From the IMG/VR virus record IMGVR_UViG_3300042566_002064, positions 1-41,061 of that record: 41,061 nucleotides of DNA; one strand, written 5' to 3'. The first letter of the stretch is position 1, and each line of letters opens with the position of its first letter. The notes beneath the pieces are model-generated. The model worked only from the letters and a program-made list of their open reading frames with translations, was not told the origin of the DNA and ran no database searches. This DNA is from a virus. Shown in pieces: positions 6,739 through 40,122 of this stretch. Made by a program: the position numbers and the translations under genes.

Positions 6739-6915
6739 TCATCGAGCCATCAGCGCGACCGTCACGGCGCTGATGAACATGACCGCGACCATGAGCAACA
6801 TGGCCCGCGCGAGGTCCTTGAGGTAGTCGCGCCAGCGCTCAGGGCGCGGCGGCTGGGGATGTTTTGGGATGCGACGGCCGACCTTGGCCACGCGAGCGGG
6901 ATCGAAGCCGCTCAT
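6739..6915 (-). CDS. Tiny membrane protein (58 aa), one TM helix
   Basis: Reads MSGFDPARVAKVGRRIP, a basic Pro-rich stretch, then a C-terminal hydrophobic helix (about residues 38-56, AMLLMVAVMFISAVTVAL). Its ATG overlaps the stop of the next upstream gene (ATGA). The positive N-terminal half predicts an N-in, tail-anchored inner-membrane protein. The frame is closed by TGA 19 bases before the bet start. No family recognised. Two membrane miniproteins in a row in an early operon are typical of accessory or host-takeover genes. Confidence 0.65.
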   Translation of the reverse strand: MSGFDPARVAKVGRRIPKHPQPPRPERWRDYLKDLARAMLLMVAVMFISAVTVALMAR

Positions 6916-7049
6916 GCGACCAGCTCCATATCGGGGGCGACTGAGCTGCCCACGACGAAGAGCACGAAGATCAGCGTCAGCACGGTCGGCCAGTACCAGG
7001 TGGGCCTGCCGAGCCGGAGGTAGAGGCGTTCGAGCAGGTAGGGGCTCAT
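6912..7049 (-). CDS. Tiny membrane protein (45 aa), one TM helix
   Basis: Reads MSPYLLERLYLRLGRP followed by WYWPTVLTLIFVLFVVG, a single strong membrane helix (about residues 18-36), and a short acidic tail. ATGA overlaps couple it to both neighbours, which is the main evidence that it is real despite its size. No family recognised. Function unknown; it could modulate the host membrane early in infection. Confidence 0.65.
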   Translation of the reverse strand: MSPYLLERLYLRLGRPTWYWPTVLTLIFVLFVVGSSVAPDMELVA

Positions 7050-7455: not shown

Positions 7456-7484
7456 ATTAAACCATGGTTACCTCAAGAAGTCAA
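7456..7484 (-). promoter_or_regulatory. Leftward early promoter PL
   Basis: On the leftward strand TTGACT (7479-7484), a 17-base spacer and TTTAAT (7456-7461) form a good sigma70 promoter. One operator overlaps each box. The layout is the same as PR: operator joined to the -35 box, 17-base spacer, operator joined to a TTTAAT -10 box. Confidence 0.8.
7460..7469. promoter_or_regulatory. Operator OL, -10 side
   Basis: Perfect palindrome AACCATGGTT overlapping the PL -10 box. Its centre is 23 bp from the next operator, the same spacing as in PR. Likely bound by the CI-like and Cro-like proteins. Confidence 0.75.
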
Positions 7485-7492
7485 CCATGGTT
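7483..7492. promoter_or_regulatory. Operator OL, -35 side
   Basis: Second perfect AACCATGGTT palindrome, overlapping the first bases of the PL -35 box. Together with 7460-7469 it would block RNA polymerase at both promoter elements. Confidence 0.75.
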
Positions 7493-7504: not shown

Positions 7505-7525
7505 AAAAAAAACCGCCGAAGCGGG
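7505..7525 (-). terminator. Intrinsic terminator of the cI-lipoprotein-membrane protein operon
   Basis: On the leftward strand CCGC-TTCG-GCGG followed by eight T residues: a short stem closed by a stable UUCG tetraloop, then a perfect U-tract. It lies about 27 bases after the stop of the membrane protein gene and 20 bases before PL, so it would insulate the lysogeny operon from the leftward early operon. Confidence 0.85.
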
Positions 7526-7551: not shown

Positions 7552-7905
7552 TTACGTTGTTCCGGTTATGAACAAGGTGTTTAGACATCCCCAGAACGGA
7601 GACAGCTCGCAACTGTTATGGAGCCAAGAAATGACGGTCGCCAGAAGCAACAAAAAACAGTGAGCCTTTGCTAGGAGAGGAAGATCAGTTTCTTTTACCA
7701 TCACATCGCCTAGTGTGATGAGACGCAGAACTCCTATTGTGGCAAGCGCCATCATCCCGTAGTAAGAGAAGGCAGCCAGAACAAGTGGGCGATATGTGGA
7801 GAACCATTCCACAGTATCGCCAACCCCGTTCAGATACAGGACGCTCCCAGCTGGTAAGGCGATAGAAGCGAAAATTGACAGTCTTGTCCAGGCTATAGAA
7901 GTCAT
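7552..7905 (-). CDS. Polytopic membrane protein in the rexB position
   Basis: A 117-aa hydrophobic protein with about three membrane helices (residues about 8-26, 40-63, 78-95) and a C-terminal tail with two Cys residues. Its ATG overlaps the lipoprotein stop (ATGA), so the two are coupled. Base composition is clearly lower in GC than the rest of the window, a sign of separate acquisition. No family recognised. Transcription from the cI promoter would express it in the lysogen; the place and build recall RexB and other prophage exclusion proteins, but there is no visible sequence likeness to RexB. It could also be another lysogenic-conversion protein. Confidence 0.75.
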   Translation of the reverse strand: MTSIAWTRLSIFASIALPAGSVLYLNGVGDTVEWFSTYRPLVLAAFSYYGMMALATIGVLRLITLGDVMVKETDLPLLAKAHCFLLLLATVISWLHNSCELSPFWGCLNTLFITGTT

Positions 7906-8402
7906 CGGCAGTTGGTTGTGATTACGCCTGGCATTGACGTTGTTGCACAGTTGATGACTGGAGAATTGTTACGCTGCATTGATTGCCCAACCCCGCCTAA
8001 CACACGCGCGAAAAATAATGCGCTCTGCTGCTGCGCTTCAATGGCTTTTGCTTCGGAATGACGGTTCCTGTTTGCATCGTCAAACATCGTCCATCGCATG
8101 CTTCTAAATTGTTCATACTGGTCTTTTGTTATTTCGCCGCGATCCATTTTCCCAGCCAGCTCAGACAAGTCTTGCCAAAGACCAATCAGCAAATGATCGT
8201 TTGGAAAATAGTTTTTTGAGACCAGCAGCATCTGTTGATTTGCTTCATAGATAGATAGCTTCCCCTCTTTCCTCAACTGACCAATTGTTTCGGACTGGGT
8301 GTCATACCCTTGTTGTCTCCAGTTTGCATTGTGTTCGTAGCTGCTTGCACATGAAGAAAGCAGGATGGAGACAGACAACAAGGCAAATATCAGTTTTGTC
8401 AT
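7902..8402 (-). CDS. Outer-membrane lipoprotein in the rexA position
   Basis: A 166-aa lipoprotein. Residues 1-17 are a signal peptide (MTKLIFALLSVSILLSS) with lipobox LSSC, Cys18 being lipidated. Position +2 is Ala, not Asp, which by the Lol rule favours the outer membrane. The mature part is helical and polar (about 45-140), ending in a Cys-containing tail (VINCATTSMPGVITTNC). It starts 5 bases after the cI stop; the AAGG ribosome site is made of the last cI codons, so it is co-transcribed and probably coupled with the repressor. AT-rich codons differ from neighbours. Family unknown; a superinfection-exclusion or conversion role is inferred from place and lipidation. Confidence 0.8.
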   Translation of the reverse strand: MTKLIFALLSVSILLSSCASSYEHNANWRQQGYDTQSETIGQLRKEGKLSIYEANQQMLLVSKNYFPNDHLLIGLWQDLSELAGKMDRGEITKDQYEQFRSMRWTMFDDANRNRHSEAKAIEAQQQSALFFARVLGGVGQSMQRNNSPVINCATTSMPGVITTNCR

Positions 8403-8407
8403 AAGAA

Positions 8408-9091
8408 TTAAACCTTCTCGCTTTTCCAGGTCATAAGAATCTTTCCGAGCACATGGAAGTCCATTCCCTCGGTGATTTCGAACGGGTCATAGCTCGGATT
8501 TAGGCTCTTGGCGCGGATGACGACACCGGTTGCAGTCGGGATGCGCTGGAGCTGCTTTATCCATCCGTGGTCGCCGATGCGGAAAAAATAGACGCCATCG
8601 CTCTTGCAGTCGGTCACGCCACGGTCCATCAAGAGCGGATCGCCGGGGTTATACATTGGCTGCATGGATGAGCCAAAGCCGGTGACGATGCAGAGGTTGC
8701 CGATGCCGGTGTTTGACGGCACGTTCATGCGTACCCACTGCTCATCGACGCTCCATGCCTTGATGAGTCCTGGCGGCTGTTCGTCAAGCACCAACCCGCC
8801 GTTCCCCATAGCTCCGGCCACATCGTATTGAGGAATGGTTCGGTAGCCGTCGAGAATTTCCGAGGCTGTGCGTTCAACCTTGACTTCCCCTTCACCCGTG
8901 GCCAACCACTCGGCTGATACGCCCAATAGCTTGGCAGCCTTCATGTTGTTGGATGCAGTGAAAGCCCGCGTCTTACCGTCAAGAGCTTTTTTCGCAGCCT
9001 GGTAAGAGATTCCAAGGCCATCGGCAAGCATCTGAACAGTGCATCCAGATTGCTTGAGCGCGAGTCGCAGTCGTTCTGTGTAATCAACCAT
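8408..9091 (-). CDS. cI: CI-like repressor with S24 self-cleavage domain
   Basis: A 227-aa lysogeny repressor. Residues 1-65 are an HTH_3-type DNA-binding domain (MLADGLGISYQAAKKAL). Residues 88-222 are an S24/LexA-like peptidase: nucleophile Ser142 in GFGSSMQPMYNPGD and general base Lys179 in GWIKQLQR, 37 residues apart as is normal, with a plausible Ala92-Gly93 cleavage site in DVAGAMG. It is therefore expected to be inactivated by RecA during DNA damage. I start at ATG 9091, preceded by AGGATGGA; the longer frame adds 11 residues without support. The operator 9086-9095 covers the start codon, which suggests autoregulation. Confidence 0.93.
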   Translation of the reverse strand: MVDYTERLRLALKQSGCTVQMLADGLGISYQAAKKALDGKTRAFTASNNMKAAKLLGVSAEWLATGEGEVKVERTASEILDGYRTIPQYDVAGAMGNGGLVLDEQPPGLIKAWSVDEQWVRMNVPSNTGIGNLCIVTGFGSSMQPMYNPGDPLLMDRGVTDCKSDGVYFFRIGDHGWIKQLQRIPTATGVVIRAKSLNPSYDPFEITEGMDFHVLGKILMTWKSEKV

Positions 9092-9095
9092 AGTT
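9086..9095. promoter_or_regulatory. Operator over the cI start codon
   Basis: AACCATAGTT differs from the palindrome AACCATGGTT at one base and contains the cI ATG on the leftward strand. Its centre is 34 bp from the next operator. Binding here would act on cI transcription or translation. Confidence 0.6.
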
Positions 9096-9119
9096 GTCCA
9101 TCCTACCCTGCCTGCATTG

Positions 9120-9129
9120 AACAATGGTT
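9120..9129. promoter_or_regulatory. Operator OR, -35 side
   Basis: AACAATGGTT, one change from the OL palindrome, overlapping the start of the PR -35 box. Its centre is 23 bp from 9143-9152. Confidence 0.7.
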
Positions 9130-9156
9130 GCTTTTACTCCTGAACTATGGTTTAAT
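9128..9156 (+). promoter_or_regulatory. Rightward early promoter PR
   Basis: TTGCTT (9128-9133), a 17-base spacer and TTTAAT (9151-9156). It mirrors PL almost base for base around the operators. Seven bases after the -10 box lies the ATG of the cro-like gene, so transcription would begin at or next to the start codon. Confidence 0.7.
9143..9152. promoter_or_regulatory. Operator OR, -10 side
   Basis: AACTATGGTT, one change from the palindrome, abutting the PR -10 box. Same position relative to the promoter as 7460-7469 at PL. Confidence 0.7.
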
Positions 9157-9370: not shown

Positions 9371-10162
9371 ATGGCGGGAGACTGGATCAAGATGCGCGCG
9401 GACCTCTTCACCCATCCGAAGGTTGTCCGCATGGCGTCCGCATTGAAAGCGGACACGCTTCGGACAGTGGGCGGACTGATGTCCGCATGGTGTCTGTTCG
9501 ACGCCCACTCTGACGACGGACGGCTGGAGGGGTATAGCCCTGAAGTCCTGGACGCGCATCTGCGCTGGGACGGGTTTGCCGCCGCCATGATTGCAGTCGG
9601 CTGGCTGGAGCACGATGAGGCTCAAGGCCTTGCACTGCCTCGCTTTGACACGCACAACGGTCAGTCTGCGAAGCGTCGTGCGCAGGATGCAGACCGCAAG
9701 CGCGAAGTCCGAAAAGCGTCCGCATCCGATGCGGACAAATTGCGGACCAGAGAAGAGAAGAGAAGAGATACATCTACTACTGACGTAGTAGATGACAAGC
9801 GCGCTGCGCGCACTCGCCCTGCTGTTCGGCCCGAAGGCGTCTCCGAGTCGGTATGGGCTGACTTCCTGACCGTGCGCAGGGCAAAGAAGGCTCCGCTGAC
9901 CCAGACCGCCCTGGACGGCATCCAGCGCGAAGCCGCGAAGGCCGGCATGGGCTTGCACGATGCGCTGGCGCTGTGCTGCGCCCGTGGTTGGCAGGGCTTC
10001 AAGGCGGACTGGGTTGCCGGGCAGAAGCCGGGCGTGGTCATGCCGCAGTCGAAGGCCGCCCGCCAGGCTGCCGATCAGGCATGGGTCGATGAGCTGATGG
10101 ACCGCAAGCCGGCCAGCGTCATCGACATCACGGACGCGCAGGTCGTGGGGGAGTCGGCATGA
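9371..10162 (+). CDS. O-like replication initiator, origin inside the gene
   Basis: A 263-aa phage replication protein. The N-terminal 105 residues resemble the DNA-binding domain of O/DnaD-type phage initiators (MAGDWIKMRADLFTHPKVVR, then GGLMSAWCLFDAHSDDGRLEGY). A charged linker (105-150) is followed by a helical C-terminal domain (RPEGVSESVWADFLTVRRA, then ALALCCARGWQGFKADWV). The linker and the early codons carry repeated GTCCGCAT iterons and a purine tract, as in the lambda O gene where the origin lies inside the gene. It starts 3 bases after the cro-like stop. It should recruit the P-like loader two genes downstream. Confidence 0.75.
   Translation: MAGDWIKMRADLFTHPKVVRMASALKADTLRTVGGLMSAWCLFDAHSDDGRLEGYSPEVLDAHLRWDGFAAAMIAVGWLEHDEAQGLALPRFDTHNGQSAKRRAQDADRKREVRKASASDADKLRTREEKRRDTSTTDVVDDKRAARTRPAVRPEGVSESVWADFLTVRRAKKAPLTQTALDGIQREAAKAGMGLHDALALCCARGWQGFKADWVAGQKPGVVMPQSKAARQAADQAWVDELMDRKPASVIDITDAQVVGESA
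9425..9488. repeat. Iteron cluster 1 in the initiator gene
   Basis: Copies of GTCCGCAT or its complement ATGCGGAC start at 9425(+), 9436(+), 9447(-, one mismatch), 9458(-, two mismatches), 9469(-, two mismatches) and 9481(+). The step is 11, 11, 11, 11 and 12 bases, one helical turn, and not a multiple of three, so it is not a product of coding repetition. Probable initiator-binding sites. Confidence 0.65.
9707..9747. repeat. Iteron cluster 2 with a perfect palindrome
   Basis: GTCCGAAA at 9707, GTCCGCAT at 9718, ATGCGGAC at 9729 and TTGCGGAC at 9740, again 11 bases apart. The middle pair forms the 19-bp palindrome GTCCGCATCCGATGCGGAC (9718-9736). A purine tract of AGAGA repeats follows directly (9748-9770), a likely melting region. 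Confidence 0.65.
9771..9794. repeat. Perfect 10-bp inverted repeat beside the iterons
   Basis: CATCTACTAC and GTAGTAGATG form a 10-bp stem around TGAC, right after the purine tract. It lies inside the linker-coding part of the initiator gene. Possibly part of the origin (melting or loading site). No U-run follows, so it is not a terminator. Confidence 0.6.
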
Positions 10163-10650
10163 AAGAGGCCTCTTTCCCTCCCGTCCTCGATCCGGCTTCT
10201 GGCAGTCGGATGATGTACTTCGACAAGCAGGACCAGCGCGTCCTGTTCGGCGACATCCGCAGCGAGTCGCACATCCTTTGCGACGGCAGGGCGCTCGAAA
10301 TCCGCCCGGCGATGCTGATGGACTTCACGTCGCTCCCGTTTGCGGATGGCAGCTTCAAGATGGTCGTGTTCGACCCGCCGCATCTGTACCGCGCTGGCCC
10401 GCAGTCCTGGCAAGCCAAGAAGTACGGAAAGCTGCCTGCGCACTGGCAGGACGCATTGCGAAGCGGATTCGCCGAGTGCTTCCGCGTGCTCGACACCTGG
10501 GGCACGCTGGTCTTCAAGTGGGCTGAGACGCAAATCCCGGTCGCCGAGGTCTTGGCGCTCACGGACCGCAAGCCCGTCTGTGGCAATCGCTCGGGCCTTC
10601 GCTCCGGCACGCATTGGCTGGTCTTCATCAAGGAGCCGCCATGCAACTGA
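10159..10650 (+). CDS. SAM-dependent (adenine-type) DNA methyltransferase
   Basis: A 163-aa protein. 'VLDPASGSRMMYFD' (residues 9-22) resembles the SAM-binding region and 'FDPPH' (71-75) the catalytic motif IV of N6-adenine/N4-cytosine methyltransferases (D/N/S-PP-Y/F/H). It is small, like other phage orphan enzymes, with no restriction gene nearby. It overlaps the initiator gene by ATGA and the P-like gene by 10 bases. It may protect phage DNA from host restriction or mark the origin; the target is unknown. Confidence 0.75.
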   Translation: MKEASFPPVLDPASGSRMMYFDKQDQRVLFGDIRSESHILCDGRALEIRPAMLMDFTSLPFADGSFKMVVFDPPHLYRAGPQSWQAKKYGKLPAHWQDALRSGFAECFRVLDTWGTLVFKWAETQIPVAEVLALTDRKPVCGNRSGLRSGTHWLVFIKEPPCN

Positions 10651-11835: not shown

Positions 11836-11860
11836 ATCATTGTTTGAAAGAAGGTTTGTT

Positions 11861-12460
11861 GTGAAGGTTCTTATTGCTTGTGAATACTCGGGGCGCGTTC
11901 GCGATGCCTTTATCCGCGCCGGCCACGATGCCATGAGCTGCGACCTGTTGCCGACCGATGCGCCGGGTCCGCATTACGAAGGGAGTCTGTTCGATGTGAT
12001 CGACTACCCGTGGGACCTGATGATTGCCCACCCGCCATGCACTCATCTTGCCGTCAGTGGATCGCGCCATTTCGATGTCAAACGCATGGACGGCCGCCAA
12101 CAATCTGCCGTTGCTTTTTTTATGCAGATTGTGCGCCGCTCCGAACACATCAAGCGCGTGGCCATCGAAAACCCGGTATGCGTGATGTCCAGTCTGTACC
12201 GAAAACCGGATCAGGTCATTCAGCCGTGGATGTTTGGGCATGGCGAAACCAAGGCCACATGCCTTTGGCTTAAGAACCTGCCGAAGTTGCGACCTACGGA
12301 CATCGTGGACGGACGCGAGGCACGAATTCACAAGATGCCTCCAAGCGCTGACCGCTGGAAGCTGAGAAGTGAAACCTATGCAGGTATCGCTCAGGCCATG
12401 GCTGACCAGTGGGGTGGTGAGCTGGTTCGCGACTACGTTCTGTTTGGTGAGGTTGCATGA
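11861..12460 (+). CDS. Compact cytosine-methyltransferase-like protein
   Basis: A 199-aa protein. 'MKVLIACEYSGRVRDAF' is the motif I glycine loop region, 'AHPPCTHLAVSG' (57-67) holds the PPC motif with the catalytic Cys60, and 'IENPV' (102-106) is the ENV/ENP motif of C5-cytosine enzymes. It lacks a visible target-recognition domain and QxRxR block, so it is much shorter than usual (over 300 aa). The start is GTG 11861, with AAAGAAGG upstream; an upstream TTG frame is unlikely. It may be a minimal enzyme or a decayed one. Its codons are a bit AT-richer than the neighbours. Confidence 0.7.
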   Translation: MKVLIACEYSGRVRDAFIRAGHDAMSCDLLPTDAPGPHYEGSLFDVIDYPWDLMIAHPPCTHLAVSGSRHFDVKRMDGRQQSAVAFFMQIVRRSEHIKRVAIENPVCVMSSLYRKPDQVIQPWMFGHGETKATCLWLKNLPKLRPTDIVDGREARIHKMPPSADRWKLRSETYAGIAQAMADQWGGELVRDYVLFGEVA

Positions 12461-30032: not shown

Positions 30033-31177
30033 ACTTCACCATTGACGGAGGCGGCGCGCTCGCCGCAGGCCAGGGCATCGGCAACCTCATCAAGGCGGCG
30101 GCCCTGGCTCCCATGTACCGCCAGAACGCAGAGCAGGATGCCATGCTCAAGGGCGCGCAGGTCTACAACCAGACCATGAGTGGCAACAAGGCCGGTACCG
30201 AAGCCGAATTGCTGGCGCTCAAGCTCGGGCTCCAGCGCGATCCGCTCAAGACCGTGATGCTTGAGCAGCAGGTGCCGCTGGATCGGCGCGCGGCCATCGA
30301 GACTTTCATCAACACCGGCAGTTTCGGTCCGTCCTACGACGTGCCGGCCGATGGCGTCGGACCTGTTCAGCCCGCGCCAGTGGACCCCGCCAAGATGAGC
30401 ACCATCGCCCGCTCGATGGCGCTCTACAACAAGACGCTGGGCGTCGGCGGCAAGGTGGACGACATGGCGCAGGCCGCCGACATCGAGCAGAAGATGCGCG
30501 ACCGGGCCGCTGTCATCCAGAACCCGGCGCTGGCGCTGCCTACCGCGCAGGCGTTCTACGCCACGAGCGGCAATGCTCCGTTCGATAACGTGGGCAACAC
30601 CGGCATGACGCTGAACGCGCTGACCGGCAACCAGTTCGAGGGAAGCCCTGCGCTGGCCAAGCTCTTCGCCGATGCGGAATCTGCCCTGGCCAACCAGCGC
30701 AACGCAGCGGCCGGCGCTTCCGGTGCAGCGGCTGGACTCTCCAGCGCTCGCCGCGATCGCGTGACGAGTGGCCTGGACAAGCCTGTGACCGTCGTGGACG
30801 ACGAGACCGGCCAGGCGTCCGTGACTGCCATCCCGACCCGTGGCGACCCGCGCACGATTGGCGTCGCACCGCCCAAGGGCAACGGCGTGGACGCCACCAA
30901 CGCCAAGGCCAAGAACGCCATCATCGCCGCCGTCGAGAAGGAAATGCCTGGCGCTGACGAAGCGACCATTTCCGCCGAGGTCGAAAAGCGTTTGGCTCGC
31001 CGTGGCCTGCCTGGTACCGGGAACAAAAATCCGGCGGCCAGCGCCAGCACGCCAAAAATCCCAAGTCAGTCGGGGCAGTTCAAGAGCCCCGATGAGGTCA
31101 AGGCGGCCTACAAGGCGGGCAAGATTTCCCGCGAAGCCGCCATGGCAACCCTGCAAAGAGACTTTGGGATGAAGTAA
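30029..31177 (+). CDS. Internal virion protein 3 (382 aa)
   Basis: GTG start overlapping the previous stop. Residues 1-140 are helical with GGGALAAGQGIGNLIKAAAL near the start; the middle has Asn/Ala repeats; the C-terminal 60 residues end in KSPDEVKAAYKAGKISREAA, a short helical module found at the end of phage internal proteins. Probably carried inside the head. Its stop shares one base with the giant gene (TAATG). Confidence 0.6.
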   Translation: MNFTIDGGGALAAGQGIGNLIKAAALAPMYRQNAEQDAMLKGAQVYNQTMSGNKAGTEAELLALKLGLQRDPLKTVMLEQQVPLDRRAAIETFINTGSFGPSYDVPADGVGPVQPAPVDPAKMSTIARSMALYNKTLGVGGKVDDMAQAADIEQKMRDRAAVIQNPALALPTAQAFYATSGNAPFDNVGNTGMTLNALTGNQFEGSPALAKLFADAESALANQRNAAAGASGAAAGLSSARRDRVTSGLDKPVTVVDDETGQASVTAIPTRGDPRTIGVAPPKGNGVDATNAKAKNAIIAAVEKEMPGADEATISAEVEKRLARRGLPGTGNKNPAASASTPKIPSQSGQFKSPDEVKAAYKAGKISREAAMATLQRDFGMK

Positions 31178-34100
31178 TGCGAGCTGATGAGTTCCTGGAC
31201 GGCCAGAGTGGCAACAAGGCCGCCGATTTCTTGGATGGTCCGGGGACCAAAGCAGCACCAGACGCGAGCTGGAGCGACAACCTCCGCGACATCGTTGCCA
31301 CGGCCCTGAAGATCGGCCCGACCGCACTCAAGGGAGTAGCCGACCTGGGCCGCCTGGCCACTGGCGACCGCATTGGCGTGGATACCTCCAACGCCATGAA
31401 GCGCGGCATGGAAGCCATCGACCAGGTGATCGGGTCGGACGCGCTCAACGCGCAGAAGGCCAACATCAACCAGGCGCTGCAAGACCCGAATGTCGGCATC
31501 ATGGACCTGCCTGGCGTCGTGATGCGCAACCCGCGCGCGGCGGCCGATACGGCAGTCTCCACCGTGGGCTCGATGTTCTTGCCCGCTGGCGCTGCGGCCG
31601 GCGTGGTCAAGGCCCTGCCTACCGTCGCCAAGATCATCCCGCGCGCTGCCAGTGTCACCCCTGGCGCTGCCGCGACCGGCGCATCCGTCGTGACCGGCGC
31701 GGCGCAGAACGCGGCCGAGACCTTCGTCGATACCGAAGGCCAGGCCATGGGCGACCGGTACACGGGCGCAGGCATCAGCGGCGCGGCATCGCTGGTGCTG
31801 GGCAAGTTGCTGGGCGGTGGTGCCGAAGGTGTCATCGCGCGTCGCCTGGCCGGTGAGACCGTCGGGCGTGGCGTCATCGAGGCGGGCAAGTCCGCCGTCA
31901 TGACCGGGGCCAAGGAGTTCCTGCAAGAGGGCGGCGAAGAGTCGTCCAACTATGTCGGCAAGCAGACCGCCAAGGGTGAGGCGATTGACCTGAACACCAT
32001 GGGCAAGCAAGGCCTGTATGGCGGCATGATCGGCTTGGGCGTGGGTGCAGGCTCTGACGTGGCGACGAACGCGGCCGACATTGGCAAGGGCGGCATCGAG
32101 CGCCAGGTCGCGCGCGCGATCGACGAGGCCGCGCAGGACATCGCGGACCGCCAGACCCCGCAGGTCATTCAGCAGACCGTGGCGCGTATCTTCGACAAGC
32201 TGCCGCAGCGGCCGGACCCCGCGCCAGCGCCCCAACCCGAACCGCAACCGCTGGCGCTTGGATTTGACCCCAGCGTGCGCAACCCGCAACCGACCATGCA
32301 GGTCGATCCGCAGGGCAACGCCAGCCCCATGCCGACCGACCAGCAGGCCGCCATCCAGGCCGAAGTCGAGCGCATGAACAGTCTGGGGCTGACGCCTGAC
32401 GTGCAGCGCGCAGCCGCGCAGCGTGCGCAGTCGCCCGAGCCCGGCCCGGTCTCCACGCCGTCCGACCTGATCCAGCGCCTTCTGGGCTCTGGCTGGACGC
32501 CGCCGCAACAGAGCGACGGCATGGTGCTCCAGAACCGCAACCGCGCGACGCCTTCCTCGGTCGCGCAAATGACCAGCATCGCCGCCAATCCAGACTACGG
32601 CCGGCTGGGCTTCTCGCGTGACTTCGCCAATGGCGCGCCCGTCGTCTCTGGTGGCTCCGTGCCGGCCAAGCAGATCGGCAAGTCGGATGTGGCGGTGGCC
32701 AGCGATGGCCGGCGCATTCCTGTGCAGTACGCCGTGGTCGAAGCCGACCAGGTGCTCGCCTCCAACAAGTCAGACGGCACGGCCAATGTGGACTATGGCA
32801 ACGACCAGGTGCAGGCGATCCGCGCGATTGCTGGCAACGGCCGCATCGCTGGCCTGCAAAGCGCCTATGCAAACGGCAAGGCCAGCGGCTACCTCAAGGA
32901 GCTGAGCGGGGACGCCCTGCATGGCATCGACAAGAAAGTCATCAAGGGGATGAAGCAGCCGGTGCTGGTGCGCATCATGCCCAAGGAGTCCCTGACCGCC
33001 GACATTGGCGACGTGTCCAACACCGTCGGCAACCTAGCTTTGTCGCCCGTGGAGCAGGCCAAGAACGATGCGCAGCGGGTGAGCCTGGATGCGCTCCAGT
33101 TCGCCGAAGACGGCTCCGTCACGCCCGAGACCGTGCGCCAGTTCGTGCGGGCCATGCCGCAGTCCGAGCAGGGTGGTCTACTGGACACCAACGGCCAGCC
33201 AACCAAGCAGGCGGTGGACCGCATCAGCGCCGCCGTCTTCTCGCGCGCTTATGGCAATGACCAGCTCGTGCGCCTGTACGCGCAGGCGCAAGACCCCGAG
33301 GCCCGGCTGATCCTGTCAGCGCTCGCTCAGGTGGCCCCGAAGATGGCCCGCCTGGAAGGCGCTGGCGCGCTGGACATCCGCGACGTGGTGACGCAGGCCG
33401 CCGAGATTGCGGTGAACGCGCGCCGCGATGGCATTGCACTGGCCAAGGCCGCGCAGCAGCTCGACATGACGGCCGATCCCTTGGTCGGCGAAGTGCTGGA
33501 CCTGTTCGTGCGCAACTCGCGCAGCGTCAAGCCCGTGGTGGAAGCGCTCGGAGCGGCTGCCGACATGGCCTACACTGAAGCGAACAAGCCCGCCTCGGAC
33601 ATGTTCGGGGAAGTGCCGCGCGCCAGCCGTGGCGACATCATCAACCAACTGAGGCCCGAGAATAAACGAGGAAGCCAAAAAGGTCTGGAACAGCCCGCAG
33701 GGCGTGAGCCTGTTCAAGAAGATGCTGGCGGGCAAGCAGCCCGACCCGCAGGATCGCAAGACGCTGGACCAGCTCAAGCGAGCCGATCCGCCGAAGACCA
33801 AGCCGACCAGCAAGGGCTGACCAGCTACACCCCGCAGGAAATCGTAGACCGCCTGAGCAAGCTGGAGCAGGCGGAAAAGGAGCGCCAGCAGCAGGAGCGC
33901 GAAGCCGAGCAGCGCGCCAAGGCCGACGCCGAGCGCGACGACTTCACTCTGACCGGAAGCGACCGGACCGCTGACGTGGCCGCCGCGCGTGGCCAGACGG
34001 ATATCTTCAGCGCCCCATCAGAAGAGCAAGTCAGCACCAAAACAAGTGAGAAGACTGGAAACACGACGAAGACATATGGAGGCTATGTCGACGGCGATGG

Positions 34101-37100
34101 TGTTCCTGTTGAGCTGAGCATCGTTCGTCGCGCTGACGGCACTCTGTTTCGAGTGTTTGCCAAGTATGGCGACGGCACCAGGAACGAGTTTGACGCCAGC
34201 TATGGCCCAGGCATCACCGATGAGCAGATCGTCAAGGCGGTGGCCGAGCCAAGTGATTGGGAAAAGGTGGCTGCCAAATCGACGGCAGATCAAGCAAGCG
34301 AAAAATCCAAAGGTGACAGATTCCCAAGCGTGGAATCCATCACTGGACTGCGAGTGGGTCCCGGCGGGACGATCAAGCCGAAAGCGATTGCACCAGGTAA
34401 ACCACTCTATCGAGAGACCGACCTTGAAGGGCTGAACGACATTCTGCGATCTGACAGCCAAGCAGATGTTGTCGGACTGTTTGTCAGCGACAACCCAGAC
34501 TTAGCTATTGGTCAAGGCGATAACACGGGCGTGCAGATTGTCTTCCGCCCAGACTCTCTGAGTGGGAAAGAGCACGTCAAGCCCATGACCGGCGAATTAG
34601 CCGGACGTGAGTACAAGACTGATGTTGTGGCGCCGCGTGCTGTGCAGGAAATCACGATGCGGGCGTCGGACCTGAAGTCTCTGCGTCCAGCAGCGAAGAG
34701 GGCACTTTCTGACTTTGACCGGTCCGATCTGCCAGGCGGCCTTGTTCGGTTTACTCGAAAGGGGCTGTCAAACGCATCACAGCCTCAAGCGCCCATGCCG
34801 ACGCCTGGCATGACGCCAAGCGAGGCCATCGTCAACGCCTTCAAGATAGAAGGCTCGACCGAGGCTGACGCAAAGGAGATGGCCACGCGGATTCAGAAGC
34901 TGGCCGACCGGAATGGCAAAGCCGTCACGCTTTGGTGGAACCCGGAGGATGGTGAGCTGGCCGCCATGGGCACCAACCCATTCGACAACGGCGTCGCCAT
35001 CACGACCGTCGAGCCAACGCCAGACCCGCGAGCAGTGGCAAAGCCGGACGCTCCGGCATCACAACCGAAAACGGAAACCAAGGCGAAAGCCCGTAGCGAC
35101 GCCGCATCCGTATCACCGGCAGGCCGCATCGACGACTTCGGCGAGAAGATCGGCGGTGCTCGCAAGGATGTCTGGACATCGTTCAAGGATGACCTAGGCG
35201 CGGTGGCCGACGACGACATCGCCAGCCAGCCGCTTTCCAAGGTGTGGCCCCAGCCGGACTACCAGGCACTGCTGGATGGCGGTGCTGACCCGTGGGCGGT
35301 GGCCTTCGCGCGAGCCGCGCGCGATGAGATTCCCTCCAAGCCGCGCCAGTCCTGGAAGGTCAAGCGCTGGGCCGAGCAGGTTCGCAGCCTGCGCGATTCG
35401 ACCATGAAGCTCATGGACGGCCGGCTCAGCGTGGAGCGGGTTAAGCAGCTCATGACGCAGTTCACCTCCCAAGGCATGCGCGACCTGGCTGGCCGAGTGG
35501 AGCTGTACACGCTGGTCGGGCATGGCAAGTCACTGGACGGTGTGCGCATCCGCTCGGGTGAATACTCGATGTACAACCGGGTCGAGTACAACCCGCCGCG
35601 CGTCATCTGGACCGTCGAGAAGGAGGCGGCCGCCACTGCCTTCAGCAACTGGCCGCGCGAGCTGGCCACGGGCGCGACCCGAGAAGAAGCGCTCAAGGCG
35701 TTCAAGGAGAAGTACGACTCGCTGGACATCAACCCGGCCGCAAAGAAAGAAGTCACGTTCGACATCTATTCAAAGCGCGGCCAGGACGGCTACTTCATTG
35801 GCAAGAAGGTCGGCCGCAATTACATCGACGTGGCCGGACCTTTTGAGAACGTCAAAGCAGCGCGCGAGCATAAGGCCACGAAGCAGGCCGAGCTGGTCGC
35901 CAAGCTGGAGAAGGCCAAGGAAATCCCGCGCGAGCGCCGCGACACCAACGAGCCGCGCGTCGGCGAGGACATGCGCAACGGCCAGGACGTGACGCCCCAG
36001 ATGTTCGGCGAGACGTTCGGCTTCCGTGGCGTCGAGTTCGGCAACTGGGTCGAACAGGGCCGCCGGCAAAAAGACCTGAACGACGCCTTCGATGCGCTCA
36101 TGGACATGGCCGCCATCATTGGCGTGCCGCCCAAGGCGCTATCGCTCAACGGAGAGCTGGGCCTTGCCTTTGGTGCCCGTGGTGGCGGTGGCGTGAACCC
36201 GGCCGCCGCGCACTACGAGCCCGGTAAGGTGGTCATCAACCTCACGAAGAAGTCCGGCGCGGGCAGTCTCGGACATGAGTGGTGGCATGCGCTGGACAAC
36301 TACTTCTCGCGCATGCGATCGAAGGGCGACGGCATGATGACCGACGCGCTGGACGTGTCCCTGGCGGCGCGTGGCTCGCCGTTCCAGCACCAGGGCGCGG
36401 TGCGCAAGGAAATGGTCGAAGCCTTTGGCGCGGTCATGAAGGCGATCCGGCAAACCGCGATCAAGGCTCGCTCTGCAAAGCTGGACGCCAAGCGCTCGAA
36501 GGAATACTGGACGACCGACCCCGAAATGTCGGCGCGCGCCTTCGAGTCCTACCTGATTTCCAAGCTCCAGGACCAGGACGCATCGAACGACTACCTGGCC
36601 AACATCGTCGCCCCTGAGACCTGGAAGGCTGCCGAGGCCCTGGGCTTCGAGCTGGATGACAGCTACCCGTATCCGACGGCTGGTGAGATTCCCGCGATCC
36701 GCGCGGGCTTCGATCACTTCTTCAAGACCATCGAGACCCGCGAGACCGACAATGGGTTGATGCTCTATGCGCCGAGCCGCGCGGCCTCAGCGCCAGGGAA
36801 GATGTCGCTTGATGCGGTTCGCCAGGCCGTACAGACGGCCATAAAAACTATCCCGAACGCTCCGGGGATCGAAGTCGTCGCTAACCCTGCGGTCGCTGGC
36901 ATTGCGGTCGGTCCGACGATACGTCCAATGGGGGGTACTCTCCCAGATGGACGAATACTTCTTTTCGCCGACAACATCGGCTCGGTCATCGACGTTCATC
37001 AGACGGTCTTTCATGAGCTGTTTCACCGGGGCGCGAAGGTCCGCTTCAACCGGAATGCAGACTATATCGCGGCAATGCTGGACCTGGCAGCCACGGATGC

Positions 37101-40100
37101 GACGGTACGCCGGCTTGCCGTTGATTGGAAAAAGTCCGACGACGGCCAAGACAAGCGCGAGCAGTTCGAGCTGAATGGTCCGCTGACTGGCGATCGGTTG
37201 GCCAACTACGAGGCGCTGGCCGTGGAAGAAGCGCTCGCCGAAATCGCTGAATCGGTCGGCTCTGGTCAGGTCAAGCCTGCCCGCTCGATGATTGAGCGCA
37301 TCACGCAGGCGCTGGCTCGCGTGGCTGAGTCCTTCGGTTTGAAGCGACTGGCGCGCTGGCTGCGCGAGGCCGATCTTTCGGCCGCCGAGAAGTTCATCGT
37401 GGAGACCGTCCGCATGTCTGGCGGTACACCAAATCAGAACACGACGGCGGTGTTGTTCAGTCAGGGCAGCGTCCAGTCTGCCGTCCAGACGTGGGATGTG
37501 ACCGAACCCGGTACTGGCGACGCCTTCATCCGCGCGATCCAGAACAACAAGATCGACGTGAAGCGGGTGCGCGACGCCATTGCCGAGCGCTACGGCAAGG
37601 TGGCCGAGTCCAAGGACGCCTACCTGGGCGAAGAGCTGTACCACGGCCGCGTGGCCGCGCGCGTCTCGCGCATCTATGACGAGCAGGTCGAGCCGCTGCT
37701 CAAGAAGATCGCGGTCGCTGGCCAGAACGTCGGCGTCACCATGGACGACGTGAACCTGTACCTACACGCTCGCCATGCGCCCGAGCGCAACGCGGCGATG
37801 AAGGCGATCAACCCGGACATGGAGAACAACGAGGCTCTGTCCGGCATGAGCAACCAGGAAGCAGCGAAGGCCCTGGCCGACTTCAAGGCCGCCGGCAAGG
37901 ACAAAGCGCTTGCGCTGATTGCTGCCGATGTGGACCAACTGCTGGCCGACACCCGCACCAACCTGGTCGCCGATGGCCTAGAGGACGCTGGCGTCATCGC
38001 GGCCTGGGAGTCCGCATACAAGCACTATGTCCCGCTCCAGCGCGACATCAAGGGCGGCGGCACGCCAAAGGGTATGGGCTTCTCGATCCGAGGCCCGGAG
38101 TCCAAGCGCGCCGTCGGCTCCAACCGCCAGGTGGTGAACATCTTGGCCAACGTGGTCGCGCAGGCCGAGACCGCCGCGATCCGCGCCGAGAAGGCAGTCG
38201 TCGGACGCACGCTGCTGGCCATGGCCAAGCAGTACCCGAACCCGGACTTCTGGAAGGTGGACATCGCGCCGACCAAGCCCCGCATCGACAAGGAAACTGG
38301 GCTCGTGCAGCGCAACGCTGTCGATCCGCTGTTCCAGACGGCGGACAACGTGGTCATGGTCAAGGACTACGGGCAAGAGCACTTCATTGTCTTCAACAAG
38401 AACAACGAGCGCGCGATGGCCATGGCGCACGCGATGAAGAACCTCGACATCGCGCCCATGAACAAGATTCTGGAAGTGGCCAACAAGGGCACGCGCTTCC
38501 TGGCTTCGCTGTTGACCCAGCGCAATCCGCTGTTCTGGCTGACCAACTTCGCGCGGGACATCCAGGGTGCGCTGGTCAACCTGGAGGGCACGGATGCCGA
38601 GGGCTTGCAGCGCGAGGCGATGGCCAACCTGCCAAAGGCGTTCAAGGGCATGCACGCGATCGTCCGAGGTGATGGCTCTGGGCAGTGGGCACGCTACGCC
38701 CGCGAGTTCCAAGAGGCCGGCGGCACGACCGGGTACATGCAGGTGTTCGAGACATCGGACAAGCGCATGGCCGACCTGGAGAGGGAAGTCGCGCGCATGC
38801 AGCAAGGCAAGGCTGACCCGCGCCGCCTGGCTCGCATGGCATTGGAGTTCGTGGACGACTACAACGACATCATCGAGAACGCGGTGCGCCTGTCGGTCTT
38901 CCAGGCCGCGCGCGATGCCAACGTTTCGACGGCTAAGGCCGCGAGCATCGCCAAGAACATCACGGTCAACTTCAACCGCAAGGGCAACCTGACCCCGCCG
39001 ATCAATTCGCTGTACATGTTCTTCAATGCCAGCGTGCAGGGCACGGCCCGTCTGGCGCAGGCCATGGTCACGAGCCGCAAGGCGCAGGCGCTGGTGGGTG
39101 GCATCGCAGCCATGGGCTTCGTGCTCGATGCGCTCAACCGCATGGCGGCCGGTGACGACGACGAGACCAAGCGCAACCGCTACGACCTGATCCCGGAATT
39201 CGAGAAGTCGCGCAACTGGATTTTCATGAACCCGATGCGTCCTGGCGAGTATGTGAAAGTGCCGCTGCCGCTGGGGCCTCACGTCTTCCACAACGCCGGC
39301 CGACTGCTGTCCGACGCGATCTTCCGCAAGAACCCGCGCAACGCTTCCGAGTACGGCTGGAGCATCGCCGGGGTGTTTCTGGACGCCTTCAGTCCGCTCG
39401 GTGCATCGCCGTCGCTTGGCCAGCTCATTTCGCCCAGCGTGCTCGATCCTGCCGTGCAGCTCGCCGAGAACAAGTCCTTCACGGGCGCTCCGGTCTTCAA
39501 GTCGGCCGATCGTGGCTTCGGCAAGACCGATCCGAAGCCGGCCTACACCCGTCACTTCGAGAGCACGCCGGACGTGTGGATCGGCGCGTCCAAGCTGCTG
39601 AGCGACGCCACGGGGGGCGACAAGGTGAAGCCTGGCGCGATCGACATCAATCCGGACGTGATGAAGCACATCTTCTACACGATGACCGGCGGGCCTGGCC
39701 GCACGCTCGACCAGACCATCGACACCGCGCAGGCGGGGTCTCGTGGCAAGGAGTTCAGCGTAAACCGCGTGCCGCTGGCCAGCCGCTTCTACGGGGCCAA
39801 CGACGACGCCCAGCGCGAGCGCGCGTACTACGACGACCGCAAGCGCGTGCTCGATGCCAAGCAGACGTTCGACTACTACATGAAGAACGGCCGCGCGGAC
39901 GAGGCCCGCAAGGTCGCGGCCGAGCTGGGTGACGGCGATCCTGCCAAGGGGCGCAAGAAGATGCTGGAGTTCTCCGCCGCCGAGAAGTCGGTGCGCAAGA
40001 TTAACGGCTCGATCCGCCAGGAGCTGGAGCGCGATGACGACGGAGAGGCCACGGCCGAGCAACTGCGCGCCCTTCGCCAGCGGCGCGTGCGGGTGATGTC

Positions 40101-40122
40101 CAACGCGCTCGACGACGAGTGA
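31177..40122 (+). CDS. Giant polyvalent internal virion protein (2981 aa)
   Basis: A huge virion protein, presumably injected with DNA. Approximate order: membrane-active Ala/Gly segment (100-300); DdrB/ParB-like domain (480-680, VASDGRRIPVQYAVVEADQV); linker 829-881 with a frame anomaly; coiled coil (890-930); AT-rich ADP-ribosyltransferase-like segment (1070-1180, RETDLEGLNDILRS, VGLFVSDNPDLA); LPD1-like metallopeptidase (1590-1800) with HEWWH (H1700-H1704); a second zincin with HELFH (H1946-H1950); and an LPD38-like C-terminal part (2140-2900). These LPD and DdrB-like domains mark 'polyvalent' proteins of phages and conjugative elements, thought to modify the host as DNA enters. Activities are inferred from motifs. 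Confidence 0.88.
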   Translation: MRADEFLDGQSGNKAADFLDGPGTKAAPDASWSDNLRDIVATALKIGPTALKGVADLGRLATGDRIGVDTSNAMKRGMEAIDQVIGSDALNAQKANINQALQDPNVGIMDLPGVVMRNPRAAADTAVSTVGSMFLPAGAAAGVVKALPTVAKIIPRAASVTPGAAATGASVVTGAAQNAAETFVDTEGQAMGDRYTGAGISGAASLVLGKLLGGGAEGVIARRLAGETVGRGVIEAGKSAVMTGAKEFLQEGGEESSNYVGKQTAKGEAIDLNTMGKQGLYGGMIGLGVGAGSDVATNAADIGKGGIERQVARAIDEAAQDIADRQTPQVIQQTVARIFDKLPQRPDPAPAPQPEPQPLALGFDPSVRNPQPTMQVDPQGNASPMPTDQQAAIQAEVERMNSLGLTPDVQRAAAQRAQSPEPGPVSTPSDLIQRLLGSGWTPPQQSDGMVLQNRNRATPSSVAQMTSIAANPDYGRLGFSRDFANGAPVVSGGSVPAKQIGKSDVAVASDGRRIPVQYAVVEADQVLASNKSDGTANVDYGNDQVQAIRAIAGNGRIAGLQSAYANGKASGYLKELSGDALHGIDKKVIKGMKQPVLVRIMPKESLTADIGDVSNTVGNLALSPVEQAKNDAQRVSLDALQFAEDGSVTPETVRQFVRAMPQSEQGGLLDTNGQPTKQAVDRISAAVFSRAYGNDQLVRLYAQAQDPEARLILSALAQVAPKMARLEGAGALDIRDVVTQAAEIAVNARRDGIALAKAAQQLDMTADPLVGEVLDLFVRNSRSVKPVVEALGAAADMAYTEANKPASDMFGEVPRASRGDIINQLRPENKRGSQKGLEQPAGREPVQEDAGGQAARPAGSQDAGPAQASRSAEDQADQQGLTSYTPQEIVDRLSKLEQAEKERQQQEREAEQRAKADAERDDFTLTGSDRTADVAAARGQTDIFSAPSEEQVSTKTSEKTGNTTKTYGGYVDGDGVPVELSIVRRADGTLFRVFAKYGDGTRNEFDASYGPGITDEQIVKAVAEPSDWEKVAAKSTADQASEKSKGDRFPSVESITGLRVGPGGTIKPKAIAPGKPLYRETDLEGLNDILRSDSQADVVGLFVSDNPDLAIGQGDNTGVQIVFRPDSLSGKEHVKPMTGELAGREYKTDVVAPRAVQEITMRASDLKSLRPAAKRALSDFDRSDLPGGLVRFTRKGLSNASQPQAPMPTPGMTPSEAIVNAFKIEGSTEADAKEMATRIQKLADRNGKAVTLWWNPEDGELAAMGTNPFDNGVAITTVEPTPDPRAVAKPDAPASQPKTETKAKARSDAASVSPAGRIDDFGEKIGGARKDVWTSFKDDLGAVADDDIASQPLSKVWPQPDYQALLDGGADPWAVAFARAARDEIPSKPRQSWKVKRWAEQVRSLRDSTMKLMDGRLSVERVKQLMTQFTSQGMRDLAGRVELYTLVGHGKSLDGVRIRSGEYSMYNRVEYNPPRVIWTVEKEAAATAFSNWPRELATGATREEALKAFKEKYDSLDINPAAKKEVTFDIYSKRGQDGYFIGKKVGRNYIDVAGPFENVKAAREHKATKQAELVAKLEKAKEIPRERRDTNEPRVGEDMRNGQDVTPQMFGETFGFRGVEFGNWVEQGRRQKDLNDAFDALMDMAAIIGVPPKALSLNGELGLAFGARGGGGVNPAAAHYEPGKVVINLTKKSGAGSLGHEWWHALDNYFSRMRSKGDGMMTDALDVSLAARGSPFQHQGAVRKEMVEAFGAVMKAIRQTAIKARSAKLDAKRSKEYWTTDPEMSARAFESYLISKLQDQDASNDYLANIVAPETWKAAEALGFELDDSYPYPTAGEIPAIRAGFDHFFKTIETRETDNGLMLYAPSRAASAPGKMSLDAVRQAVQTAIKTIPNAPGIEVVANPAVAGIAVGPTIRPMGGTLPDGRILLFADNIGSVIDVHQTVFHELFHRGAKVRFNRNADYIAAMLDLAATDATVRRLAVDWKKSDDGQDKREQFELNGPLTGDRLANYEALAVEEALAEIAESVGSGQVKPARSMIERITQALARVAESFGLKRLARWLREADLSAAEKFIVETVRMSGGTPNQNTTAVLFSQGSVQSAVQTWDVTEPGTGDAFIRAIQNNKIDVKRVRDAIAERYGKVAESKDAYLGEELYHGRVAARVSRIYDEQVEPLLKKIAVAGQNVGVTMDDVNLYLHARHAPERNAAMKAINPDMENNEALSGMSNQEAAKALADFKAAGKDKALALIAADVDQLLADTRTNLVADGLEDAGVIAAWESAYKHYVPLQRDIKGGGTPKGMGFSIRGPESKRAVGSNRQVVNILANVVAQAETAAIRAEKAVVGRTLLAMAKQYPNPDFWKVDIAPTKPRIDKETGLVQRNAVDPLFQTADNVVMVKDYGQEHFIVFNKNNERAMAMAHAMKNLDIAPMNKILEVANKGTRFLASLLTQRNPLFWLTNFARDIQGALVNLEGTDAEGLQREAMANLPKAFKGMHAIVRGDGSGQWARYAREFQEAGGTTGYMQVFETSDKRMADLEREVARMQQGKADPRRLARMALEFVDDYNDIIENAVRLSVFQAARDANVSTAKAASIAKNITVNFNRKGNLTPPINSLYMFFNASVQGTARLAQAMVTSRKAQALVGGIAAMGFVLDALNRMAAGDDDETKRNRYDLIPEFEKSRNWIFMNPMRPGEYVKVPLPLGPHVFHNAGRLLSDAIFRKNPRNASEYGWSIAGVFLDAFSPLGASPSLGQLISPSVLDPAVQLAENKSFTGAPVFKSADRGFGKTDPKPAYTRHFESTPDVWIGASKLLSDATGGDKVKPGAIDINPDVMKHIFYTMTGGPGRTLDQTIDTAQAGSRGKEFSVNRVPLASRFYGANDDAQRERAYYDDRKRVLDAKQTFDYYMKNGRADEARKVAAELGDGDPAKGRKKMLEFSAAEKSVRKINGSIRQELERDDDGEATAEQLRALRQRRVRVMSNALDDE
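33665..33820 (+). other. Frame-shifted island inside the giant gene
   Basis: From 33665 the +1-shifted frame is open for 51 codons and ends at TGA (33818-33820). By hand count 46 of 51 codons there end in G or C, as in the rest of the gene, while the annotated frame has only 21 of 52. The shifted frame reads EEAKKVWNSPQGVSLFKKML and on to DRKTLDQLKRADPPKTKPTS. After 33820 the annotated frame again has the strong GC3 pattern. The frame change falls between 33653 and about 33670, near an AAA run. Confidence 0.75.

What the first reader, a model, noticed from the sequence alone, without database searches (positions are those of the whole stretch)
7552..8402. Lipoprotein plus membrane-protein pair in the rex position: candidate superinfection-exclusion system
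Seen: the two genes follow cI, the first so closely that its ribosome site lies in the last cI codons; they overlap each other by ATGA and end in a UUCG terminator before PL. They are clearly AT-richer than the rest. The first has a lipobox with Ala at +2 (outer membrane), the second about three membrane helices. Known: lambda keeps rexAB here, and other prophage lipoproteins (Ltp of TP-J34, Llp of T5) block infection. Inference: they are expressed in the lysogen and may exclude other phages. I recognise no homology to RexA or RexB.
Basis: partly seen in the sequence, partly recalled or inferred. Interest (0 to 1): 0.8.

Follow-up and report, generated by a model that had tools for sequence, protein, structure and literature searches.

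The report
Exported prophage cargo beside cI repressor
A dormant virus of bacteria carries, in the same operon as the gene that keeps it dormant, two small genes for proteins sent to the bacterial envelope, probably to keep rival viruses out; the position is a known cargo site but the proteins are new and their function is untested.

Summary
cI (8408-9091), a 166-aa lipoprotein (lip, 7902-8402) and a 117-aa membrane protein (mem, 7552-7905) run together on the minus strand and stop just before two repressor-operator-like palindromes (OL). Three more lie at OR, against 0.65 expected in the whole window. The pair is in the exact rex slot, is AT-rich (47% vs 63% GC), and both genes are under purifying selection. 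No known family matches.

New here: every lip relative found (three lineages, down to 26-29% identity) sits directly behind a cI, one behind a very different cI. Export is conserved; the lipid anchor and the membrane partner are not, since one relative has a signal peptide without the Cys and no mem. DNA homology to it breaks at the cI end and resumes at the terminator, so the slot is a swappable cassette. In other relatives, unrelated exported proteins fill the slot (6 of 20 families vs 3 of 166 nearby).

Best reading: lysogen-expressed envelope cargo, most likely superinfection exclusion. Exclusion is untested, and lysogenic conversion is a live rival. Known kind of site, unclassified proteins.

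The parts
8408..9091 (-). cI-type repressor (HTH plus S24 peptidase domain), 227 aa from the ATG; the ORF list starts at an upstream TTG (9124)
   Evidence: Peptidase_S24 E 1.7e-12; phrog_4 E 3.9e-43; relative L001 has the same 227-aa start
7902..8402 (-). lip: 166-aa exported lipoprotein
   Evidence: ORF and lipobox; purifying selection; relatives behind cI
8349..8402 (-). lip signal peptide and lipobox LSSC, acylated Cys18, Ala at +2
   Evidence: read from the sequence; lipobox rule
8064..8333 (-). lip helical core, residues 24-113, with the conserved YFPND
   Evidence: AlphaFold2 pLDDT about 87-98 over most of it; alignment A1
7905..7952 (-). lip C-terminal two-cysteine motif NC...TNCR, shared with L085
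   Evidence: alignment A1; disulfide is inference
7552..7905 (-). mem: 117-aa membrane protein, 2-3 predicted membrane segments
   Evidence: ORF, hydropathy, purifying selection; model pLDDT 45
7505..7524 (-). terminator-like CCGC-UUCG-GCGG plus T8
   Evidence: read from the sequence; weak: not called, not in the MFE fold; stronger stem at the same place in L085
7460..7492 (.). OL-like pair of palindromes AACCATGGTT (7460-7469, 7483-7492) over a PL-like promoter TTGACT-N17-TTTAAT on the minus strand
   Evidence: promoter read directly sequence, not from the scanner
9086..9152 (.). OR-like palindromes AACCATAGTT (9086), AACAATGGTT (9120), AACTATGGTT (9143)
   Evidence: conserved in L001 and L085

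Best explanation
lip and mem are a cargo (moron) cassette in the cI operon. While the prophage is dormant, transcription from the repressor promoter runs cI-lip-mem and stops before OL; on induction it is switched off together with cI, so the phage's own progeny are spared. lip is exported and, by its +2 Ala, predicted to be anchored in the outer membrane facing the periplasm; mem sits in the inner membrane. The most likely job is superinfection exclusion at the envelope: the helical periplasmic domain of lip binds a receptor or an incoming tail or ejection protein and blocks genome entry, with mem as an optional inner-membrane partner. Shown: anatomy, operator-like sites, coding constraint, conserved linkage to cI, cassette borders. 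Inferred: transcription in the lysogen, localisation, exclusion and its target.
For: Position exactly between cI and OL. All lip relatives found sit directly behind cI, two by ATGA overlap, one behind a very different cI. Export conserved across 29% identity. Sharp cassette borders against L085. Unrelated exported proteins fill the same slot in relatives: 6 of 20 families against 3 of 166 nearby, P=5e-5. The region behind cI is a known accessory site expressed from the cI promoter, with rexAB and bstA as examples (PMC7067206). Prophage lipoproteins that exclude phages are established: Ltp, encoded in the lysogeny module (PMC3952083), and mEpimmI lipoproteins (PMC11893012).
Against: No experiment, no RNA data, no target. 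No sequence or fold link to any known exclusion protein. The mEpimmI lipoprotein genes lie in the structural cluster, not behind cI. The slot enrichment uses a home-made signal rule on a small, related sample. mem is missing in one relative.
Confidence: 0.5

Rival explanations
1. Lysogenic conversion: lip (with mem) alters the envelope for the host's benefit (stress, predation, surface properties), like lambda Bor, with no effect on phages.
For: Same anatomy and lysogen expression would be expected; lambda Bor is an outer-membrane lipoprotein expressed in the lysogen (cited in PMC7067206). The unrelated exported proteins in the slot need not share an anti-phage role.
Against: Slots behind cI with tested function (rexAB, bstA) act against phages. 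No similarity to Bor or another conversion family was found.
Confidence: 0.27
2. RexAB-like abortive infection: mem is an ion-channel or membrane-damaging effector and lip its sensor or restraint.
For: Same slot as rexAB, second gene a small membrane protein translationally coupled to the first.
Against: RexA is a cytosolic DNA-binding sensor (PMC12894663), whereas lip carries a signal peptide and lipobox; no RexA or RexB match; L085 has the exported protein without any membrane gene.
Confidence: 0.1
3. Passive or recently acquired host cargo without a function in the lysogen.
For: AT-rich against the rest of the phage and no phage-family match.
Against: Purifying selection in both genes; family conserved behind cI down to 29% identity; no host homologue found in pattern scans of about 85,000 species genomes, which however see only fairly close relatives.
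Confidence: 0.08

Closest known systems
lambda rexAB and RexAB-type systems (P. putida PP_5643-5644, PMC12894663)
   Same: Two genes directly or nearly behind cI, second product a membrane protein, expected in the lysogen
   Different: First product is an exported lipoprotein, not a cytosolic DNA-binding RexA; no sequence match; one relative has no membrane gene
Ltp of Streptococcus phage TP-J34 (PMC3952083)
   Same: Lipoprotein encoded in the lysogeny module, small helical-repeat protein outside the cytoplasm, proposed to stop DNA entry
   Different: Gram-positive, cytoplasmic-membrane anchored; no sequence or fold match found here
mEpimmI exclusion lipoproteins Lpp021/Lpp010 (PMC11893012); Llp of T5 and Cor of phi80/N15 (from memory and PMC11436027)
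   Same: Prophage or phage exported proteins that exclude other phages of Gram-negative hosts
   Different: mEpimmI genes lie in the structural cluster; Llp and Cor are much smaller; no homology found
BstA of Salmonella prophage BTP1 (PMC8585504, PMC7067206)
   Same: Accessory gene after the repressor, transcribed from the cI promoter, phage defence
   Different: Intracellular abortive-infection protein, unrelated
Bor of phage lambda
   Same: Outer-membrane lipoprotein expressed by the lysogen
   Different: Not in the cI operon; serum resistance, not exclusion; no homology found

Membership tests
RexAB-type system | genes lie just behind cI, before OL/PL | tested here: met
RexAB-type system | first protein is a cytosolic DNA-binding RexA | tested here: not met
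   lip has a signal peptide and lipobox; no RexA match in Pfam, PHROGs or PADLOC
RexAB-type system | second protein is a RexB-like multi-pass membrane effector | tested here: inconclusive
   mem has 2-3 membrane segments but no family match and a poor model
Ltp family (host cell surface-exposed lipoprotein) | sequence match to the family profile | tested here: not met
   not among Pfam hits at E up to 1
Ltp family (host cell surface-exposed lipoprotein) | fold with tandem helix-turn-helix repeats | tested here: inconclusive
   helical hairpins predicted, fold searches unspecific
Superinfection-exclusion lipoprotein (functional class) | exported lipoprotein of a prophage | tested here: met
   lipobox, integrase and cI on the same record; L085 relative lacks the lipobox
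Superinfection-exclusion lipoprotein (functional class) | blocks infection by another phage | not testable with these tools
   needs plating assays
cI-operon moron | lies behind cI and is replaced as a unit between related phages | tested here: met
   cassette borders at 8425 and 7514 against L085; different tenants in relatives
cI-operon moron | transcribed in the lysogen | not testable with these tools
   no RNA data; inferred from spacing and operators

The most novel reading that the evidence does not exclude
In this group of temperate phages the site directly behind cI is a dedicated, fast-swapping slot for exported proteins: a reservoir of unrelated, uncharacterised envelope-acting exclusion proteins (lipoproteins and periplasmic proteins) expressed with the repressor, of which lip-mem is one.
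Probability: 0.35. Interest if true: 0.7.

Novelty: new variant of a known kind. Interest (0 to 1): 0.45.

Why it matters
Defence genes in prophages are mostly found by homology; the cI slot gives a rule that needs none. If the slot in these phages mainly carries exported exclusion proteins, the roughly nine unrelated families seen here are a short list to clone and test, and would show how prophages guard the envelope in hosts where little is known.

Tried and rejected
Phage and plasmid collections by translated search with lip, its two relatives and mem: nothing useful; the Acinetobacter DUF4942 rows are chance-level (E 0.3). Pattern scans of about 85,000 species genomes: no relative. Taxon-wide genome search could not be started from a virus record. 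SHOCT (E 0.04), GvpG, exosortase and spanin hits are below cut-offs and were set aside. Foldseek and VIA gave only helical bundles, no relation claimed; Ltp was not listed, which says nothing. The mem model is too poor to search. Rfam and tRNA scans were empty. epsilon15 and the E. coli relative have no annotated gene between cI and the left operon that resembles the pair. phiPSA1 gp30, 0.5 kb behind CI, shows no signal peptide. A 4-row 'non-exported' slot family (L088/L099) is a wrong-frame pick by my script over a contig-truncated lip relative.

Full report
Setting. The window is a 41-kb virus record of a temperate phage: integrase (239-1450), RecT on the left arm, an S24-type cI repressor, a DnaT-like replication protein close to that of Salmonella phage epsilon15, a P-like loader, NinB, terminase, portal, head and tail-fibre genes. 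No close relative is in the phage collection; nearly only the replication gene matches at DNA level. One near-identical contig exists in IMG/VR (3300025106_000004, L001). The host is unknown.

Observation. On the minus strand cI ends at 8408, lip starts at 8402 with its ribosome site inside the last cI codons, lip and mem share ATGA, and the pair ends at 7552. GC is 46.9% over the 851 bp against 62.9% for the window. A short UUCG hairpin with eight T follows at about 7505-7524. It is weak: four pairs, not called by the scan and not in the minimum-energy fold; relative L085 has a five-pair stem with T8 in the same place.

The rex slot is real. AACCATGGTT with at most one mismatch occurs six times in the window (0.65 expected): twice just beyond the terminator (7460, 7483), three times between cI and the cro-like gene (9086, 9120, 9143), once elsewhere. 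Both clusters overlap promoter-like sequence of the same geometry (TTGACT-N17-TTTAAT at OL, TTGCTT-N17-TTTAAT at OR, read directly; the scanner's rule for the second hexamer excludes TTTAAT). The operator-like sites recur in L001 and L085. So lip and mem lie between cI and OL, as rexAB does in lambda.

The genes are functional. Between the window and L001 lip shows 2 nonsynonymous of 14 changed codons and mem 4 of 13, where about 79% and 75% would be expected without selection (P=5e-7 and 0.001).

Relatives of lip. Only three lineages were found: window/L001; L006 (53% identical, contig 3300008066_000007, its last part cut or garbled at the contig end); and L085/L088 (26-29%, contigs 3300021579_000152 and 3300021952_000101). 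All lie directly behind cI. In L006 and L085 the start codon overlaps the cI stop by ATGA. L006 has a very different cI (phmmer E 1.5e-4 to the window's), so lip follows the position, not one repressor. L006 keeps a lipobox with Ala at +2; L085 has an A-L-A type signal peptide and no Cys, so export is conserved and lipid anchoring is not. L085 has no membrane gene: a terminator and two operator-like sites follow at once; L006 ends before that point. Window and L085 DNA align through cI to 8425 and again from 7514, with only a 40-bp patch between: a clean cassette.

Shape of lip. The AlphaFold2 model (4 sequences) is confident over about residues 24-113: helical hairpins with the conserved YFPND between helices 2 and 3, then a long helix and a disordered tail that ends in a two-cysteine motif (NC...TNCR) shared with L085. 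Foldseek and VIA find only helical bundles at scores that carry no meaning.

The slot in other phages. From three replication-protein searches cI-like genes were found with a profile and the genes chained behind each were inspected. In relatives outside the enteric epsilon15-like set the slot often holds small exported proteins of unrelated families: lipoproteins in L005, L022, L139/L223; signal-peptide proteins in L008 and L188, and as second gene in L025/L186 and L059/L176. Six of 20 first-slot families score as exported against 3 of 166 families in the right operon of the same loci (Fisher P=5e-5), and two of those three look like false positives. Limits: a home-made signal rule, crude gene chaining, shared ancestry, partly redundant loci, and a sample drawn by one gene. 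None of these proteins has a family of known function.

Mechanism. Shown: anatomy, operator-like sites, constraint, linkage to cI, cassette structure. Inferred from established biology: genes behind cI are transcribed in the lysogen (PMC7067206), and the cI operon falls on induction, shown for Tha in staphylococcal prophages (PMC11087260). Inferred more weakly: outer-membrane anchoring of lip by the +2 rule, and exclusion of incoming phages at the envelope, as for Ltp (PMC3952083) and the mEpimmI lipoproteins (PMC11893012). I put exclusion at about 0.5, host-benefit conversion at 0.27, Rex-like abortive infection at 0.1. That the pair is lysogen-expressed envelope cargo of one kind or another I hold at about 0.85.

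Novelty. The slot is a known moron site (Degnan et al. 2007, as cited in PMC7067206). The protein families are unclassified in every library searched, and an exported tenant differs from RexAB and BstA. I file it as a new variant of a known kind and not as a RexAB member: the cytosolic RexA feature was tested and not met.

Noticed in passing
31177-40122 (+): One open frame of 2981 aa, over a fifth of the phage, matching very large phage proteins of unknown function (phrog_616, phrog_14770).
   Followed up: no
9086-9095: An operator-like palindrome overlaps the ATG start of cI (9091), so cI may be leaderless or autoregulated from a site on its own start codon.
   Followed up: no
L005:1052-1486, L008:2819-3436, L022:3794-4183, L025:3533-4024, L059:865-1248, L139:2610-3101, L188:2889-3188: Unrelated small lipoproteins or signal-peptide proteins directly behind cI-like genes in related phages, none with a family of known function.
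   Followed up: partly
L050:3164-3883: A 239-aa protein with an N-terminal zinc-ribbon-like motif and one membrane helix sits behind cI in another relative.
   Followed up: no
6739-6915 and 6912-7049 (-): Two tiny overlapping frames (58 and 45 aa), each with one hydrophobic stretch, lie in the left operon beyond OL; the first weakly resembles a small membrane protein.
   Followed up: no
10159-10650 and 11840-12460 (+): Two DNA methyltransferase-like genes on the right arm (phrog_954, phrog_757).
   Followed up: no
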